NCBI GenBank assembly: GCA_949285025.1
Contig: CASDXG010000096.1
Location: forward strand, 1 to 64,000
Direction: 5' to 3'
Origin: an uncultured Bacteroides sp.
GTDB lineage: Bacteria; Bacteroidota; Bacteroidia; Bacteroidales; Bacteroidaceae
DNA: 64,000 nt
Part shown: positions 56,790 to 64,000 of the stretch, piece by piece
How positions within the stretch are numbered: position 1 is the stretch's first letter
Layout: each line of letters begins with the position of its first letter
Position numbers and translations under genes: made by a program
The notes under the pieces: model-generated
Seen by the model: only the letters and a program-made list of their open reading frames with translations
Database searches by the model: none
Told to the model about the DNA's origin: nothing

Positions 56790-59700
56790 TTAGAATTTAA
56801 CCATTACATTGAAACCGAAACGGCGGGTTGACGGATTGGCCGTGAATTCTCCGAAATTACCTGACAGGTCGTTACCGAAAGAAGTCATTTCCGGATCGAT
56901 GAACGTATTGGAATCGGGTGTCCAAAGGAACAGGTTGTTTCCGTAAGCAGATATACGTACAGCCTGCAAAGGAGTGTTGACAAGCCACTTGTTCGGCAGG
57001 TCCCATCCGATAACCAGTGAGCGGAGTTTTACAAAAGATTTGTCAATCAGGAAGGCAGAAGCGTAATCGAAACCTCCGTCTGTCCAGAATGTCTGGATGC
57101 CTTCCCCGCTTGATATCGGGGTCGTATTCTCTACATAACTTACTTCCCCGCCCGGTCCTGTTACTTTATTTACTGATCCGGGAATGATAAAGTTGTTACG
57201 TCCGTTGTAAGTTGTCTGGATGGCTGTACCGCCGAAGTAGGTCAATGACTTGCTGTTTGAGTACATTACACCGCCATGACGGATATCGAAGTCGGCGCTT
57301 AACGTAAAGCCTTTATAGCGGAATGTGGTTGATAACCCCATTTGATACTTATTGTTCATGTCACCCACTACGGCATATTCAGAAGCAACTACGGGCTTTC
57401 CGTCAATAGCGCTTACTACAATGTTGCCATTCGGGTCGCGTTCCGGTACAGCAGATTCGAATACTCCCACAGGCATTCCCGTAATAGCGTACATGCTGGT
57501 GCCGCCTCCTAATGGGAAGAGTGAGGCTCTTCCTCCCAATTCTTCCGGCAGACTGATTACCTTACTCCAGTTGCGTGTGAAGTTTACGCTGACATCCCAG
57601 CTGAAATCCCGTATTTGTACCGGGGTGAAGTTTACCAACAGTTCCACACCTTTATTCTCTACTTTACCGAGATTCATGTTGCGTGATGTATAACCGGCCG
57701 ACGGATCCATGTTGACATTAAAGATTTGTTTGTCGGAATTACGGTTATAATATGCGAAGTCGAACGAAATCCGGTTATGAAGGAATGCCATGTTCAGACC
57801 GAATTCATACTCGGTAGTCATTTCGGGAGTCAGGTACATGTTCCCGAGATTATTACTGATAGTGTAACCGTTTACGCCGTTCAGCGGGAGATTGATTTGC
57901 CCGAATCCCATCGGATATTGGCCTTGAATGAACGGAGTGCTGGTCATGTATACTTTGGCATCGTTACCGGTTTTACCCCAGCTGGCGCGTACTTTACCGA
58001 AGGTGATGATGTCTTTCCATTCGTTATTCAGCAGTTCGCTGAAGATAAAGCTTCCGGTAACACCCGGATAGAAGAAGCTGCGTTCATTCTTAGGCAGTGT
58101 GGAAGACCAGTCGTTACGCGCGGTAACGGTCAGGTAAACCATGTTCTTCCACGAACCTTCAAACTGTCCGAATACACCCATCAGGCGGCGAAGTTCCTTA
58201 TTCGTAGTAATAAGCGGGGTTGAAGGTGAGTTTGTCAGGTTGAACCATGTGGGAAGAGTCAGGTTGGTGACTTCGGCCTGTTGATAAGAATAACTGCGTT
58301 CATTCCCGTTGAAACCTACCAATGCGTTTACATGGAAGTCGTTGATCGGCATATCGAAATTAACCATGATGTCGTGGTTAATCTCACGACGGCGGCTGAT
58401 TTGCTGCGTGTATGAACCGGTTTCCGAGTAGAAAGGACTGCTTGCACCGAGTTGTGTTCCGTTGGGGACATCATCGGTGTAGAACAAGGCTCTCAGGTTA
58501 GGAACACCCAAGTCCTGTTGTCCTGTAGTTGTATCGAGGCCTAAGCGGTAGGTGAACTTGAAGTATTTCAAGAAATCATAGTCTACCTGGAATTTACCGT
58601 AAAAGCGTTCCGATTCGTATGCGTTCAGATAATTCTCCAAAGTATAGTACGGGTTGTTCAGTCCGTACCATGTATAGTAATAACCCGGCGTGTTATGTAT
58701 GTTACTCATATCCGCCATATCGGTGATACTGATGTCGCGCGGAGTCTGGTAAACAGCGTTAAGAGCGGTGAGTCCTTGTCCTGTTCCGGCGAACTTGTTC
58801 TTTTGTGTGGAGTAGTTCAACGAAGTAGAGAACTTCAGGTTGCCGATAGAATGGCTTCCGCGAGCCGAGAACGTATATTTGTCGTAAGAATCGGCGTCGG
58901 TAGGCATGATACCGTCATCGCTGGTTTGCGAGAACGAAACGAAATAATCGCTGCGGTCTGTTGCACCGTTGAATGAGAGGCTGTTGCTGTAACGGAAGCC
59001 TGCATCGAAGAAATCTTTCATATTGTCTTCGTTGGCAACGTAGGGTTTTGTGCGTTGTTCCACATCGCCGAATCCCCAACCATACGGGCGCATGGTCCCG
59101 TTAAAGCGAGGTCCCCAAGAACCGTTCTCTGCGGGATCGGTAGTTCCATAGAATCCTTGACCGAAATCGTTTTGAAATTCCGGCAGGCGTAATACGGTAG
59201 ACCATTGCAGACCGCCGTTATATTCGATACCCAAGCCGCTTCCTTTTTTCCCGCTCTTGGTGGTAATCATGACAACACCGTTCGCTGCACGGCTACCATA
59301 AAGGGCAGTTGCAGCGGCACCTTTCAGGATGGTCATACTTTCCACGTCGTCAGGGTTGACGGCATTTGCACCGTTACCGAAGTCAAAGCCGTTATTCAGC
59401 TCATCGTCACTGCGGGTGGTTTCGTTGGTCAAAGGCACACCGTCAATGACATAAAGCGGTTGGTTGTTTCCATTCAACGAACTGATACCACGAATGATTA
59501 CGGAGTTTGAGGAACCCGGGTCGGATGAAGTGCTTGAAATCTGCACACCTGCAACCTTACCGGCGAGGCTTGACATGATATCCGATGAGCGGGTTGCCGT
59601 AATCTTTTCGTTATCTACTGCAGTGGCCGAGTAACCAAGTGCTTTCTCGGAACGTTTTATTCCCATAGCCGTAACGACCACTTCTTCCAGCATTGCGTTG

Positions 59701-59993
59701 TCCGACTTCAAGACAATATGCAGCGTCGGCTTTATTTCCACTTCTTGCGTTTGCATCCCGATGTAGGAAATGGTCAAAGTTTTTGCCGAACTTGGCAGAT
59801 TTGTGATTGAAAACTTTCCATCTATGTCGGTCACAGTACCTTTATCTGTTCCTGTAATCCGAATAGATGCTCCTACAACAGGTAAACCATCTTCCTCCGA
59901 AGTAACCGTACCGGTTACCGAAGTTGTTTGAGCATTTACCAGACCTATGCTTATAAATAAGCAGGTCATAAACAGCATCAATTTCCTTTTCAT
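56790..59993 (-). CDS. SusC/RagA family TonB-linked transporter, currently expressed partner of an inversion switch
   Basis: 1067 residues. Signal peptide (MKRKLMLFMTCLFISIGLVNA), carboxypeptidase-like domain (VTGTVTSEEDGLPVVGASI to about residue 95), TonB-box region LEEVVVTAMGI, plug (PLYVIDGVPL, MTILKGAAATALYGSRAANGVVMITT) and a barrel ending in FGFNVMVKF. Codons 68-112 (59793-59659) form one copy of the 135-bp inverted repeat shared with the silent SusC at 61596. So codons 1-67, with their promoter, are on the movable segment, and codons 113 onward are fixed. In this assembly the gene is intact and on. Confidence 0.96.
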   Translation of the reverse strand: MKRKLMLFMTCLFISIGLVNAQTTSVTGTVTSEEDGLPVVGASIRITGTDKGTVTDIDGKFSITNLPSSAKTLTISYIGMQTQEVEIKPTLHIVLKSDNAMLEEVVVTAMGIKRSEKALGYSATAVDNEKITATRSSDIMSSLAGKVAGVQISSTSSDPGSSNSVIIRGISSLNGNNQPLYVIDGVPLTNETTRSDDELNNGFDFGNGANAVNPDDVESMTILKGAAATALYGSRAANGVVMITTKSGKKGSGLGIEYNGGLQWSTVLRLPEFQNDFGQGFYGTTDPAENGSWGPRFNGTMRPYGWGFGDVEQRTKPYVANEDNMKDFFDAGFRYSNSLSFNGATDRSDYFVSFSQTSDDGIMPTDADSYDKYTFSARGSHSIGNLKFSTSLNYSTQKNKFAGTGQGLTALNAVYQTPRDISITDMADMSNIHNTPGYYYTWYGLNNPYYTLENYLNAYESERFYGKFQVDYDFLKYFKFTYRLGLDTTTGQQDLGVPNLRALFYTDDVPNGTQLGASSPFYSETGSYTQQISRRREINHDIMVNFDMPINDFHVNALVGFNGNERSYSYQQAEVTNLTLPTWFNLTNSPSTPLITTNKELRRLMGVFGQFEGSWKNMVYLTVTARNDWSSTLPKNERSFFYPGVTGSFIFSELLNNEWKDIITFGKVRASWGKTGNDAKVYMTSTPFIQGQYPMGFGQINLPLNGVNGYTISNNLGNMYLTPEMTTEYEFGLNMAFLHNRISFDFAYYNRNSDKQIFNVNMDPSAGYTSRNMNLGKVENKGVELLVNFTPVQIRDFSWDVSVNFTRNWSKVISLPEELGGRASLFPLGGGTSMYAITGMPVGVFESAVPERDPNGNIVVSAIDGKPVVASEYAVVGDMNNKYQMGLSTTFRYKGFTLSADFDIRHGGVMYSNSKSLTYFGGTAIQTTYNGRNNFIIPGSVNKVTGPGGEVSYVENTTPISSGEGIQTFWTDGGFDYASAFLIDKSFVKLRSLVIGWDLPNKWLVNTPLQAVRISAYGNNLFLWTPDSNTFIDPEMTSFGNDLSGNFGEFTANPSTRRFGFNVMVKF
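59659..59793 (-). repeat. Inverted repeat, copy 1 (inside the intact SusC gene)
   Basis: 135 bases. On the minus strand it begins AAGTTCGGCAAAAACTTTG and ends GGCTATGGGAAT. It differs from copy 2 only at 59748 and 59730, both third codon positions (Thr ACG/ACA and Lys AAG/AAA). Outside these limits the two SusC sequences diverge at once. Confidence 0.95.
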
Positions 59994-60325
59994 ACAAAAT
60001 TTCTCTTAAAGTTTAATTTCTGTTTCAAAACCATTAACAAGGCGCAAAAGTAATAAATTATTTTTAAATGTTTGTCTTTTTGAATGTATAAAGCAAGAAA
60101 AAATGTATATTTTGTTATATTTCGGTGATATAATCTTGATAAATATCCATTTTTGACGCCTTTGCAAGAAGATAATGTCAGGTATAAATGATGAAATCGA
60201 CAGGGGGAAGTAGTGAAAAAAACATGCCGTTTTATAATATTTGCTACGAGTGTAAGGCTCTATATTTCCGACTTTTACCTATTTTATACTAGAGTTGATT
60301 AAAATTTGCAGAAATAAACGATGCC
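59994..60325. promoter_or_regulatory. Divergent promoter region inside the invertible segment
   Basis: 332 bases without a gene. TACTTTTG (60052-60045, minus strand) is the likely -7 element of the SusC gene, giving a leader of about 45 bases; no consensus -33 TTG is visible. For the recombinase only imperfect elements (TAAAATTTG near 60300) are seen. The region is AT-rich. No operator or riboswitch is evident. Confidence 0.55.
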
Positions 60326-61516
60326 ATGTTAAAGATAAGATATAGAAAAGTATATAACAGAAAAAACAGGTTGAACCGTCAGGGTGAGGCATTGATACAG
60401 GTAGAGGCGTCTCTAAATAAAAGGAAAGTTTATTTTTCCACTCATATTTATATTGCTCCGCAGTATTGGAATAAGGAGAAGTCGCAAATTGTGAAGCATC
60501 CTCACCAAGAGGAGTTGAACGGAATGATTCAAGAGTTTCTTTTAAAATTGCAGTGGAAAGAGTTGGAATGCTGGAAAAAAGGTATTCCTGTTTCTCTTGA
60601 TATTTTGAAAACCGGGACGGAAACCGGGACAAATCACACGCATGGCTCTTTTGTAGAAATGGGTAAACAATGGGTAGATATGTCTGCGCGTCGGGAAAGT
60701 TCGAAGCAGAATTTACGTACGACATTGAATCTTTTGGAAAAATTTCACAGAGAATTGCCGTTGTCGGAACTGACTTATTCCATCCTGCAAGATTTTGAGT
60801 ATTGGCTGAGGATACGTCGATACAGGCAGAATACCATAGCAAAGCATATGGCTCATCTGCGGACATTGGCAAGAGAAGCGATAAAGAGGGGTTATCTTCG
60901 CGCGGAGGATAATCCGTTTTACAGTTATAAGATACGAACGACCGGAGGAGAACATGTGTTTTTATTGCCAGAGGAACTGGAAAAGTTGGAAACATTGGTT
61001 CTGCCGGAGCGGGAAAATGTGCTGCAACATTCTTTAGATGCTTTTTTGTTTTGCTGTTATACAGGCTTAAGATATTCCGATTTTACACAACTTACCGCGA
61101 AACACCTTATTTATATAAAAGGATATTTGTGGCTAAACTTCCGCACAATTAAGACAGACGAGGAAGTCAGTCTGCCTTTGTATCTGCTTTTTGATGGGAA
61201 AGCGGTAGGTTTGATTCGGAAATACGAAACGAAGATGAGCGATTTCTTTTGCCTGAAATCGAATTCATCGGTGAATAAAGATCTGGAGAAATTGCGGAAA
61301 TTCGCGAAATTGGAAAAGCATTTTTCTTTCCACTCGGCAAGACATACCAATGCAAGTTTGCTGATACATTATGGAGTGAAAATCACCACAGTACAGAAAC
61401 TGTTGGGACATCGCAGCATAAAAACCACACAATTATACAGCGATGTTTTCCATGATTCGATTGTAGAAGACCTGAAAAAGTGCAATTATTCTTCCCGCAA
61501 AGGAGATAAAGAATAA
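60326..61516 (+). CDS. Tyrosine-type site-specific recombinase (putative SusC invertase)
   Basis: 396 residues. An Arm-type N-terminal domain (about 1-95, LKIRYRKVYNRKNRLNRQGEA) is followed by a SAM-like core-binding domain (about 100-205) and the catalytic domain. Catalytic residues are Arg in CYTGLRYSDF, His-x-x-Arg in FHSARHTNASLL, His in LLGHRSIKTTQLYSDV and the nucleophilic Tyr in that same stretch. The family includes Bacteroides Tsr invertases that flip promoters and gene segments. It sits wholly within the segment between the 135-bp repeats, with its stop 80 bp from copy 2, so it is the obvious enzyme for inverting that segment. Confidence 0.93.
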   Translation: MLKIRYRKVYNRKNRLNRQGEALIQVEASLNKRKVYFSTHIYIAPQYWNKEKSQIVKHPHQEELNGMIQEFLLKLQWKELECWKKGIPVSLDILKTGTETGTNHTHGSFVEMGKQWVDMSARRESSKQNLRTTLNLLEKFHRELPLSELTYSILQDFEYWLRIRRYRQNTIAKHMAHLRTLAREAIKRGYLRAEDNPFYSYKIRTTGGEHVFLLPEELEKLETLVLPERENVLQHSLDAFLFCCYTGLRYSDFTQLTAKHLIYIKGYLWLNFRTIKTDEEVSLPLYLLFDGKAVGLIRKYETKMSDFFCLKSNSSVNKDLEKLRKFAKLEKHFSFHSARHTNASLLIHYGVKITTVQKLLGHRSIKTTQLYSDVFHDSIVEDLKKCNYSSRKGDKE

Positions 61517-61542
61517 GCGGTTTAAAGAAAACATCGGCATGA

Positions 61543-61576
61543 ATTTCCGTAAATACGGAAATCTTTTCCGGAAAAG
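61543..61576. repeat. Two adjoining palindromes between the recombinase gene and repeat copy 2
   Basis: ATTTCCGTA-AA-TACGGAAAT (61543-61562) is directly followed by CTTTTCCGGAAAAG (61563-61576). Both are perfect palindromes. The first can form a hairpin followed by CTTTT, a weak terminator for the recombinase transcript. Alternatively the pair could be recombinase- or accessory-protein binding sites. No counterpart exists beside copy 1. Confidence 0.65.
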
Positions 61577-61595
61577 AAGGCCGTCTTTCAGGGAT

Positions 61596-61730
61596 AAGTT
61601 CGGCAAAAACTTTGACCATTTCCTACATCGGGATGCAAACACAAGAAGTGGAAATAAAACCGACGCTGCATATTGTCTTGAAGTCGGACAACGCAATGCT
61701 GGAAGAAGTGGTCGTTACGGCTATGGGAAT
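61596..61730 (+). repeat. Inverted repeat, copy 2 (start of the silent SusC)
   Basis: 135 bases matching copy 1 in inverted orientation at 133 positions; differences at 61641 and 61659. It encodes the same 45 residues in the same frame (core SYIGMQTQEVEIKPTLHIVL), so an exchange anywhere in it gives an in-frame fusion. Confidence 0.95.
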
Positions 61731-64000
61731 TTCACGGGAGAAAAAAGCATTGGGTTACGCCGTTCAGGAGGTTGGGGCAGAACAATTGACACAAGCCGGC
61801 AATTCAAATCTGTCGGGTGCGCTGCAAGGCAAAGTCTCGGGCGTAGACATTCGTCCTTCTTCGGGCATGCCGGGTGCATCATCTCAAATAACGATTCGCG
61901 GATCCCGTTCTTTTTCGGGGGACAATACGCCGCTGTATGTCATCGACGGTATGCCGGTAACTTCTACACCGGATATCGATACGGAGGTGCAAAATAACGG
62001 AAGTGTGAGCGGAGCCGATTTCGCAAACCGTGCGGTAGATATTGATCCGAACGATATAGAAACGATTACAATTCTGAAAGGGCAGGCGGCAGCTGCATTA
62101 TATGGTATCCGTGCTTCAAATGGAGTTGTCGTCATTACAACGAAAAGCGGGAAGGGGCTGGAAAAAGGCCGTTCGCAAATCTCGCTTTCTTCCAGTGTAA
62201 GTTTTGATGTGGTAGGGCGCACTCCGGAACAGCAGATGCTGTATGCTCAAGGGTCAGCCGGCAAGTTTGACCCGACTTCCGGGCAGTCTTGGGGGCCTCT
62301 TATATCGGAACTTCCCAATGATGCGCAGTATGGAGGAAATACCGATAACCAATATACGCAGCAATACGGCAGGCATGAAGGTATGTATTACGTACCACAG
62401 CGTGCCGCAGCCGGGCTTGATCCTTGGGCTTATCCGCAGGCGTATGACAATATCGGGCAGTTCTTCCGTACGGGGGTTACGTGGAACAATTCGTTTAATA
62501 TCGCTCAGGCATTGGATAAGACGAATTATTCTTTCTCATTGGGTTCGTCTACCCAAAACGGAATTATCCCGGAAACGGGAATGCATCGCTATAATGCAAA
62601 GGTAAATGTCGAGACAAATCTGAACGAGCATTGGACTACCGGTATCGTGGCAAACTATATTACCAGTCATATTGATAAGGCAACTACATCGGGGAACGGG
62701 ATTCTGCGTACGGTATACCCGGCGCCGCCCAGCTATGATCTGGCGGGTATTCCAAGTCACATTGCTGGCGATCCGTACACTCAAAACTCATTCCGTACGG
62801 CGATGGATAATGCCTATTGGTCGGCAGATAATAATGAATTTAATGAGAAAACGAATCGTTTCTTCGGGAATGCCTATGCAAATTTCCGGACAAAATTCGG
62901 GACAGAGAATCATACGTTGAACGTAAAGTATATGGCCGGCGTGGATGCTTATACAACGCATTACAGCGATAGCTACGGATACGGCAGTTACACCGGACAG
63001 AACGGGCAGTTGGAGAAGTATGGTTGGACGAATGCAACTTATAACTCTTTGCTGACGATTAATTATGATTGGCGTATTAATCATGACTGGAGCCTGAATG
63101 CGATTGTGGGAAATGAGGTGATTCAGAGTAACCGGAACAAGTATTATTCGTATGGTTCGAACTTTGGTTTTTCCGGATGGAACCATTTGGACAATGCAAC
63201 GATTCAAAGCACTTCTTCCGAAAGATGGTCGAAGCGTACGGTGGGTTTCTTCGGGAATATTTCTGCTTCGTATAAGAATATGTTGTATTTAACGCTAACC
63301 GGGCGTCAGGATTATGTGTCGAATATGCCACGCAATAACCGCTCGTTCTTCTATCCGTCGGTGTCTTTAGGTTTCCTTCTTACAGAGTTGAAGGCATTGA
63401 AAAACGATGTGGTGAATTATGCAAAGATTCGTTTTTCTTATGCAGAGGTGGGACAGGCAGGCGATTATCTTGAGAATTATTTTGCGATTCCGGCTTACGG
63501 AGGAGGATTTTACCAGTTGACTCCGTTGATGTATCCCATAAACGGCAGCACGGCATACGTACCGTATGATGTAATCTTTGATTCAAAGTTGAAGCCACAA
63601 AACACGAAATCGTATGAAATCGGGGCAGATGTGAGTATGTTTGACAATTTGATTAGTGTCAGTTATACTTATTCCCGGCAAAATGTAAAGGATCAGATTT
63701 TTGAAGTTCCTTTGTCCGGTTCTACGGGAGCATCATCGTTATTGACAAATGGAGGGCGTCTTCATACCGATACGCACGAGCTTAATATCACAATCAGTCC
63801 GGTTCGTTCACAAAAAGTTGACTGGGATTTCGGATTTAACTTTACGCGGATGACGAATATGGTCGATGAGTTGGCTCCGGGAGTTGAGAGTATTACCTTG
63901 GGAGGATATGTAACACCTCAGGTTCGTGCCAGCGCTGGTGAAGAATTTCCCGTGATTTACGGTTCAAGCTATAAGCGCGATGCGAATGGGAATATTCTGG
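61596..64000 (+). pseudogene. Silent SusC/RagA gene lacking its 5' end (donor half of the switch), runs off the window
   Basis: An uninterrupted frame runs from repeat copy 2 to the right edge (open already from 61543, after a TGA at 61540). It encodes about 800 residues of a SusC transporter: EEVVVTAMGISREKKALGYA, plug (NTPLYVIDGMPVTS, ITILKGQAAAALYGIRASNGVVVITT) and much of the barrel. There is no signal peptide, no carboxypeptidase-like domain beyond its last part and no promoter. The first in-frame ATG is inside the repeat (61633). It is therefore not a decayed pseudogene but a silent cassette that becomes complete when the segment inverts. SusD and further genes probably follow beyond the window. 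Confidence 0.9.

What the first reader, a model, noticed from the sequence alone, without database searches (positions are those of the whole stretch)
59659..61730. DNA-inversion switch exchanging the N-terminus between two SusC transporters
A 135-bp inverted repeat (133 of 135 identical; the two differences are synonymous) lies in codons 68-112 of an intact SusC gene and at the head of a second SusC in opposite orientation. Between the copies sit the promoter, signal peptide and first 67 codons, plus a tyrosine recombinase gene. Inversion would move the promoter and N-terminal part in frame onto the other SusC, so the cell shows one transporter and hides the other. Established knowledge: tyrosine-recombinase-driven SusC/SusD phase variation exists in Bacteroides fragilis. 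Inference: this locus works likewise, with the recombinase gene itself flipping and exchange inside coding sequence. The cargo is unknown.
Basis: partly seen in the sequence, partly recalled or inferred. Interest (0 to 1): 0.95.

Follow-up and report, generated by a model that had tools for sequence, protein, structure and literature searches.

The report
Flip switch between two nutrient importers
In this gut bacterium a 1.8-kb stretch of DNA that carries the front end of a nutrient-importer gene, a likely promoter and a gene for a predicted DNA-flipping enzyme lies between matching reversed sequences inside two importer genes, and is predicted to flip so that the cell would make one importer and hide the other; it belongs to a known kind of switch, but comparison with relatives narrows the likely cutting site to 11 letters.

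Summary
Two inverted 135-nt repeats (133/135; both differences synonymous) lie in codons 68-112 of an intact susC (SusC1, 56790-59993 -) and at the head of a start-less susC (SusC2, + strand). The 1.8 kb between them holds a promoter-like -7 box, SusC1 codons 1-67 and an intact-looking tyrosine recombinase. In-silico inversion fuses codons 1-67 in frame to SusC2.

Of the 80 best recombinase loci (172 found), 42 have the same layout (start-bearing susC on one side, start-less susC on the other); 19 show neither. One Bacteroides fragilis record carries such a locus twice, in opposite states. In 55 of 55 ON/OFF repeat pairs (40 loci) the first 11 nt of the repeat are identical within a locus, although they differ between loci (310 of 2,936 between-locus comparisons identical): the likely crossover core. 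A sister species shows the two repeats evolving in concert.

SusC1/SusD1 resemble the crystallised importer BT2264/BT2263 of B. thetaiotaomicron (oligopeptide ligands), whose locus carries a DNA-invertase homologue and shows reciprocal expression with the neighbouring MAFF pair. This is a new member of a known kind (Bacteroidales SusC/SusD shufflons). Flipping in this species itself was not seen.

The parts
56790..59993 (-). SusC1, intact TonB-linked outer-membrane importer (1067 aa), ON in this assembly; BT2264-type
   Evidence: ORF; TIGR04056 696 bits; PDB 5fq6_B 1592.8 bits
55251..56771 (-). SusD1 (506 aa), BT2263-type lipoprotein partner of SusC1
   Evidence: PF12771; PDB 5fq6_A 535.6 bits
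54726..55211 (-). small lipoprotein, PF12888, BT2261-type component
   Evidence: PDB 5fq6_E E=1.1e-28
59659..59793 (-). inverted-repeat arm 1, inside SusC1 codons 68-112
   Evidence: 133 of 135 paired with arm 2
61596..61730 (+). inverted-repeat arm 2, at the head of SusC2
59782..59792 (-). predicted 11-nt crossover core in arm 1 (AGTTCGGCAAA)
   Evidence: within-locus identity 55 of 55 pairs; position; the extended 18-nt site occurs only twice in the genome held
61597..61607 (+). predicted 11-nt crossover core in arm 2 (AGTTCGGCAAA)
59793..61596 (.). predicted invertible segment between the two cores (1,804 bp)
   Evidence: a homologous segment is found in both orientations in L063/L065
59793..59993 (-). 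mobile N-terminal cassette: start, signal peptide and codons 1-67 of the ON SusC
60045..60052 (-). predicted Bacteroides -7 promoter box TACTTTTG (TAnnTTTG) for the ON SusC
   Evidence: all 50 ON arms tested have TAnnTTTG, 56-71 nt upstream of the start
60326..61516 (+). tyrosine recombinase (396 aa), predicted invertase, inside the segment
   Evidence: Pfam; R249 K276 H336 R339 H362 Y371 present in 81 of 81 sequences
61597..64000 (+). SusC2, start-less (OFF) importer gene; runs out of the window to C96:64563, followed by SusD2 at C96:64578-66152
   Evidence: TIGR04056 526 bits

Best explanation
This is a predicted DNA-inversion switch: a 1.8-kb segment that holds the start, the first 67 codons and the likely promoter of one SusC importer gene, together with a tyrosine recombinase gene, is bounded by near-identical inverted repeats inside two SusC genes, and its flipping would move that front end in frame from one importer to the other. 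In the assembly SusC1 is ON (complete) and SusC2 is OFF (no start, no signal peptide): shown. The recombinase is inferred to cut at an 11-nt core at the inner end of the repeats. Each flip would give one complete SusC and one headless SusC, so a cell would display either the BT2264-type, probably peptide-importing SusC1/SusD1 or the SusC2/SusD2 pair of unknown cargo. That the two states occur is shown for a homologous B. fragilis locus; for this species it is inferred from layout and from the concerted evolution of the repeats.
For: Repeat, frame and in-silico product. Same layout in relatives: 55 of 80 loci have an inverted repeat bracketing the recombinase; 42 of 80 (L063 and L065, one genome, both counted) have an ON susC on the recombinase's 5' side plus a start-less susC on the other, 11 only the ON half, 8 only the OFF half (in those 8 the sequence held begins 225-709 nt upstream of the recombinase), 19 neither. 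Both states in one record: B. fragilis Q1F2 (NZ_CP018937.1) holds the locus twice; the recombinase is on + in one copy and - in the other while the outside flank is on - in both; the N-terminal side stays, the SusC bodies swap, and the exchange lies in a stretch of 113 identical nt. Core: the first 11 nt of the repeat are identical in 55 of 55 ON/OFF pairs from 40 loci, against 310 of 2,936 comparisons between loci; 13 versions; the next best offset between -15 and 109 has 0.87 of pairs identical. First codon of the repeat is AGT in 116 of 116 arms (50 ON, 66 OFF), while the Ser at the ninth codon is AGT in 1 of 49 ON and 0 of 65 OFF arms. Promoter box upstream of 50 of 50 ON genes tested, 6.5 expected after base shuffling; three more ON arms are cut short and were not tested (L005, L008, L071). 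Concerted evolution: within codons 68-112, 17 sites pair the two arms of one species, 0 pair orthologues, 1 pairs crosswise and 5 differ in one sequence; the 4 orthologue-pairing sites lie in codons 67 and 113. Close homologues of SusC1 and SusC2 (59-94% identical) are ON in some species and OFF in others. Catalytic residues are kept in 81 of 81 (residue roles recalled).
Against: No read data: the window genome and its closest relative L004 show the same orientation. The genome is a MAG (76.7% complete, 109 contigs), and repeats are where assemblies can err, though L004 is an independent colinear contig. 19 of 80 recombinase relatives have no SusC repeats that I could find; 12 of those have over 3.5 kb of sequence on both sides, so the enzyme family is not tied to SusC. 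A single fixed crossover does not by itself homogenise the other ~120 nt of the repeat; gene conversion or homologous recombination must add to it. The 55 pairs come from related loci and are not independent, and arms were found by a protein motif, so arms that lack it were not counted. The two B. fragilis copies sit near the ends of one record; whether that is an unclosed overlap or a true duplication was not settled, and its recombinase is only 45% identical to this one.
Confidence: 0.87

Rival explanations
1. The segment flips by ordinary RecA homologous recombination between the 135-nt repeats, and the recombinase acts elsewhere or is a passenger.
For: The repeat is long and homogenised over its whole length, more than a site-specific enzyme needs; within-pair identity declines from the core outwards.
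Against: In 10 loci the best bracketing repeats share only 74-79% over 114-167 nt. The longest exact run in the 135 nt is 11-113 nt, median 28, and 20 nt or less in 17 of 55 pairs, short for efficient RecA exchange (general knowledge), yet the same 11 nt are identical in 55 of 55. The recombinase lies between the repeats in each of these loci.
Confidence: 0.08
2. A frozen switch: it flipped in the past but is locked now, and the repeats are relics.
For: Only one orientation seen in the window and in L004.
Against: The arms share 17 species-specific sites, so they exchanged sequence after the split from L004; the recombinase reading frame and catalytic residues are intact.
Confidence: 0.08
3. 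Assembly artefact or chance: a duplicated susC domain joined wrongly in a MAG.
For: MAG with 109 contigs.
Against: An independent contig (L004) is colinear over 20 kb at 82.7% identity with its own differing repeats; the layout recurs in isolates, including complete chromosomes such as Phocaeicola vulgatus ATCC 8482 (L016).
Confidence: 0.02
4. Promoter inversion only, without protein fusion, as was suggested for BT2264/BT2263 in PMC6080902.
For: The promoter box lies inside the segment.
Against: The repeats lie in coding sequence 67 codons past the start, and SusC2 lacks start and signal peptide, so the front of the protein would move too.
Confidence: 0.03

Closest known systems
SusC/SusD shufflons of Bacteroides fragilis driven by invertase Tsr0667 (Nakayama-Imaohji 2009, not held; seen only through passages in PMC4747536 and PMC11852207)
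   Same: A DNA invertase and shufflon-type inversions at SusC/SusD gene clusters that change which one is expressed.
   Different: Tsr0667 is described as acting on three SusC/SusD clusters and nine other regions; here the 18-nt site occurs only twice in the genome held and there is one partner.
Locus around MAFF of B. thetaiotaomicron, BT2261-BT2269 (PMC6080902, passages)
   Same: Two SusC/D pairs in reverse orientation with a DNA-invertase homologue, BT2267. SusC1, SusD1 and the PF12888 lipoprotein match BT2264, BT2263 and BT2261.
   Different: SusC2 was not matched at 45% or more by the ON susC of the B. faecis locus that holds the BT2264 homologue, so the partner is probably not maffC. That paper suggested inversion of the promoter sequence; here the protein front would move too.
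R64-type (Rci) shufflons
   Same: A recombinase chooses among alternative coding ends by inversion; its sites are called asymmetric (abstract of PMC11852207 in the listing).
   Different: There the C-terminus of PilV is exchanged (recalled); here the N-terminus and promoter are, and the recombinase gene lies in the segment.
B. fragilis Mpi capsule-promoter inversions
   Same: Phase variation by DNA inversion in Bacteroidales (PMC12632263 and PMC4747536, passages).
   Different: Promoters flip, no protein fusion is described in those passages; many scattered sites.

Membership tests
Bacteroidales SusC/SusD shufflon | tyrosine recombinase next to or inside the invertible DNA | tested here: met
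   inside the segment
Bacteroidales SusC/SusD shufflon | inverted repeats joining two or more susC genes so that one is complete | tested here: met
Bacteroidales SusC/SusD shufflon | promoter within the invertible DNA | tested here: met
   by motif only: TAnnTTTG; no -33 element seen; transcription not measured
Bacteroidales SusC/SusD shufflon | both orientations occur | tested here: inconclusive
   seen in a homologous B. fragilis record; not seen in this species, no reads available
Bacteroidales SusC/SusD shufflon | recombinase required for inversion | not testable with these tools
   needs a gene removal
Tsr0667 orthologue | orthology of the recombinase to Tsr0667 | not tested
   no Tsr0667 sequence at hand; source paper not held
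Locus around MAFF (BT2261-BT2269) | BT2264/BT2263-type SusC/D with BT2261-type lipoprotein | tested here: met
Locus around MAFF (BT2261-BT2269) | partner SusC is the maffC (BT2268) orthologue | tested here: inconclusive
   SusC2 not matched at 45% or more by the ON susC of the B. faecis locus; BT2268 itself was not at hand by name
R64 Rci shufflon | exchange of alternative C-termini of a pilin by Rci (recalled) | tested here: not met
   N-termini of SusC would be exchanged

The most novel reading that the evidence does not exclude
One clade of recombinases carries its own promoter plus SusC front end as a flipping cassette across Bacteroidaceae and couples it to a choice of SusC bodies through an 11-nt in-gene core that must match only within a genome. 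It thereby enforces one importer per cell, and explains the reciprocal switch between the peptide importer BT2264/BT2263 and the mucus factor BT2268/BT2269 reported under IgA as an N-terminal exchange rather than a promoter flip.
Probability: 0.6. Interest if true: 0.7.

Novelty: new member of a known kind. Interest (0 to 1): 0.55.

Why it matters
It would let a clonal population display alternative outer-membrane importers, one per cell, which bears on nutrient choice, phage adsorption and antibody recognition. The predicted 11-nt core, and the rule that it matches within a locus but not between loci, are directly testable, offer a way to lock cells in one state, and give a concrete mechanism to test for the unexplained reciprocal expression at the B. 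thetaiotaomicron MAFF region. They also warn that gene models of OFF copies may start too late: the PDB sequence of BT_2264 begins inside the repeat.

Tried and rejected
Repeat search in the rest of the genome: only the two arms match at E <= 0.001, so no third partner in what is held; the MAG is 76.7% complete, so one could be missing. Plasmid collection, near mode: no match. Rfam and tRNA scans: only two tRNAs, not part of the locus. The first SusC detection scripts were too strict and lost loci (and 68, superseded). One search is the earlier count (39 both, 11 only ON, 8 only OFF, 22 none; 47 ON and 63 OFF arms); one search recovered three loci (L018, L033, L078). One search gave 16 of 17 identical 11-mers; its one exception (L034) is a one-codon offset of the regex in the printed sequences. 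L065 was left out of the arm and pair counts as a duplicate of L063, and arms cut off by the end of the sequence held were dropped (ON arms of L005, L008, L071). The 80 loci are the best of 172 found.

Paper searches. Closest were MAFF (PMC6080902), passages on Tsr0667 (PMC4747536, PMC11852207), SusC-linked invertible regions in IBD (PMC10939037) and a remark on nutrient-receptor shufflons of B. thetaiotaomicron (PMC12548429). No paper was read whole: passages of PMC12548429, PMC10939037 (plus its section 8), PMC12632263, PMC11852207, PMC4747536, PMC11892184, PMC6080902, PMC7782687, PMC11817032 and PMC13114119 were seen. Nakayama-Imaohji 2009, Porter 2020 and Milman 2023 are not held, so details known from them may overlap with what is reported here.

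Considered and rejected: assembly chance and pure promoter inversion (see rivals). No structure prediction, fold search or homologous-protein search was run.
Full report
Observation. The inverted repeat is real: 59659-59793 against 61596-61730, 133 of 135 identical, inside SusC1 codons 68-112, with sharp ends (52/201 identical on the N-terminal side, 69/144 over codons 113-160). In the codon-framed count, shifted by one base, it is 132 of 135. SusC1 is complete (1067 aa). SusC2 lacks a start and a signal peptide and runs on past the window to C96:64563, followed by a susD. A tyrosine recombinase (60326-61516) lies between. Reversing the segment in silico gives an in-frame SusC1(1-67)-SusC2 fusion and leaves SusC1 headless. 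The SusC1 and SusC2 bodies are only 30% identical over 1,015 aligned positions.

Relatives. A scan of species genomes with the recombinase found 172 relatives, of which the best 80 were kept. An inverted repeat of 20 nt or more brackets the recombinase in 55 of 80. By reading frames, 42 of 80 have an ON susC on the 5' side of the recombinase and at least one start-less susC on the other (L063 and L065, of one genome, both counted); 11 have only the ON half; 8 only the OFF half; 19 neither. In the 8, the sequence held begins 225-709 nt upstream of the recombinase, where the ON arm would lie; in 7 that is the end of the contig, while L082 lies within a long contig. In the earlier count of 39 loci with both halves, 27 had one and 12 had two start-less partners on that side. 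In the genus of the window 45 of 61 genomes, its own included, carry a recombinase match at E <= 1e-40.

Both states in one record. The B. fragilis Q1F2 record carries the locus near both ends. The recombinase is on + in one copy and - in the other, while the outside flank is on - in both. The 9,160-bp segment is 99.98% identical between copies and the outer flanks are exchanged. The alignment of the four repeats shows that the N-terminal side stays with the ON gene and the SusC body changes, with the exchange in a stretch of 113 identical nt. This shows inversion in a homologue (recombinase 45% identical), not in the window's species.

Crossover core. In 55 ON/OFF pairs from 40 loci, the window among them (L065 left out as a duplicate), the first 11 nt of the repeat are identical 55 of 55 times; for 12 nt it is 48 of 55, and the next best offset between -15 and 109 reaches 0.87. 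Between loci the 11-mers match in 310 of 2,936 comparisons, and there are 13 versions. Two versions break the usual AGTTC (AGTCC, AGTAC), yet ON and OFF arms of those loci carry the same change. The first codon is AGT in 50 of 50 ON and 66 of 66 OFF arms, whereas the serine at the ninth codon uses AGT in 1 of 49 ON and 0 of 65 OFF arms. This is what a recombinase overlap region would look like: it must match within a locus but is free to drift between loci (inference). In the window the core is 59782-59792 and 61597-61607, and the extended 18-nt site occurs nowhere else in the 2.05 Mb held. The loci are related, so the 55 pairs are not independent, and arms were found by a protein motif, so arms without it are not in the count.

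Homogenised repeats. Between the window and L004 (82.7% identical over 20 kb, same orientation), 17 sites inside codons 68-112 are shared by the two arms of one species and differ between species; none inside is shared by orthologues only, 1 pairs crosswise and 5 differ in a single sequence; four orthologue-pairing sites are in codons 67 and 113. So the arms exchanged sequence after the species split. A fixed crossover alone would not do this; branch migration, conversion or homologous recombination is inferred. Over 52 pairs of 37 loci, median identity within pairs falls away from the core, not quite evenly (0.96, 0.885, 0.685, 0.74, then 0.50 past the repeat; between loci 0.75, 0.70, 0.57, 0.63, 0.48). 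The longest exact run in the 135 nt is 11 to 113 nt, median 28, over 55 pairs.

Promoter. A TAnnTTTG box lies 56-71 nt upstream of the ON start in 50 of 50 genes tested (6.5 expected from base shuffles). The motif is the Bacteroides -7 consensus as recalled. No clear -33 element was found in the window.

States across species. SusC1-type genes (62-94% identical) are ON in the window, L004, L034 and L058 but OFF in L050 (B. faecis). SusC2-type genes (59-93%) are OFF in the window, L004, L006, L058, L063 and L075, ON in L065, L068 and L076, and one (L014) stands downstream with its own start. So across species either gene can hold the front end.

Cargo and link to MAFF. SusC1, SusD1 and the small lipoprotein match BT_2264, BT_2263 and BT_2261 of PDB 5fq6; a later paper speaks of oligopeptide ligands in that structure (PMC7782687, passages). 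The B. faecis OFF copy is nearly identical to BT_2264 in the alignment shown, and the deposited BT_2264 sequence starts at the Met that is the 13th codon of the repeat. PMC6080902 (passages) reports BT2268/BT2269 and BT2264/BT2263 in reverse orientation, an invertase homologue BT2267, and opposite expression changes under IgA, and suggests inversion of the promoter sequence. The window's layout suggests that the protein front moves as well. The partner SusC2 is probably not maffC (BT2268 itself was not compared). SusD2 best matches PDB 3fdh, a SusD homologue; its cargo is unknown.

Known or new. Passages in PMC4747536 and PMC11852207 describe Tsr0667 shufflon-type inversions at SusC/SusD clusters in B. 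fragilis; PMC10939037 (section 8) reports SusC-linked invertible regions whose orientation differs in IBD; PMC12548429 (passages) mentions nutrient-receptor shufflons in B. thetaiotaomicron. Hence a new member of a known kind. The 11-nt core and the within-locus matching rule were not met in the searches made or in the passages read, but key source papers are not held, so their novelty is uncertain.

Noticed in passing
L063 and L065 (NZ_CP018937.1 near 20-41 kb and 5.163-5.190 Mb): The B. fragilis Q1F2 chromosome record carries the same region near both ends, with the shufflon in opposite states; either an unclosed circular overlap or a duplication.
   Followed up: partly
PDB 5fq6_B against window 59500-59993 and L050:12041-15013: The deposited BT_2264 sequence starts at an internal Met inside the repeat, as expected for a gene model made from the OFF state.
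   Followed up: yes
L020, L023, L024, L029, L030, L043, L045, L049, L051, L054, L056, L062: Recombinase relatives with over 3.5 kb on both sides but no SusC repeats found; L029, L030, L043, L051 and L056 have other short inverted repeats near by, perhaps other invertible DNA.
   Followed up: no
L014:18227 and L080:17107 (+): susC copies downstream of the recombinase that seem to carry their own N-terminus, so some related genes stand alone.
   Followed up: no
L081 and L082 (Bacteroides salyersiae, NZ_KB905466.1 about 1.499-1.512 Mb): Two recombinase copies about 10 kb apart in opposite directions, with 914-nt inverted repeats at 99% identity, a larger possible invertible unit.
   Followed up: no
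L010, L019, L061, L066, L072: A stop codon inside the recombinase match turned out to lie at residues 386-388 of 388-395, the ordinary end of the protein, not a break.
   Followed up: yes
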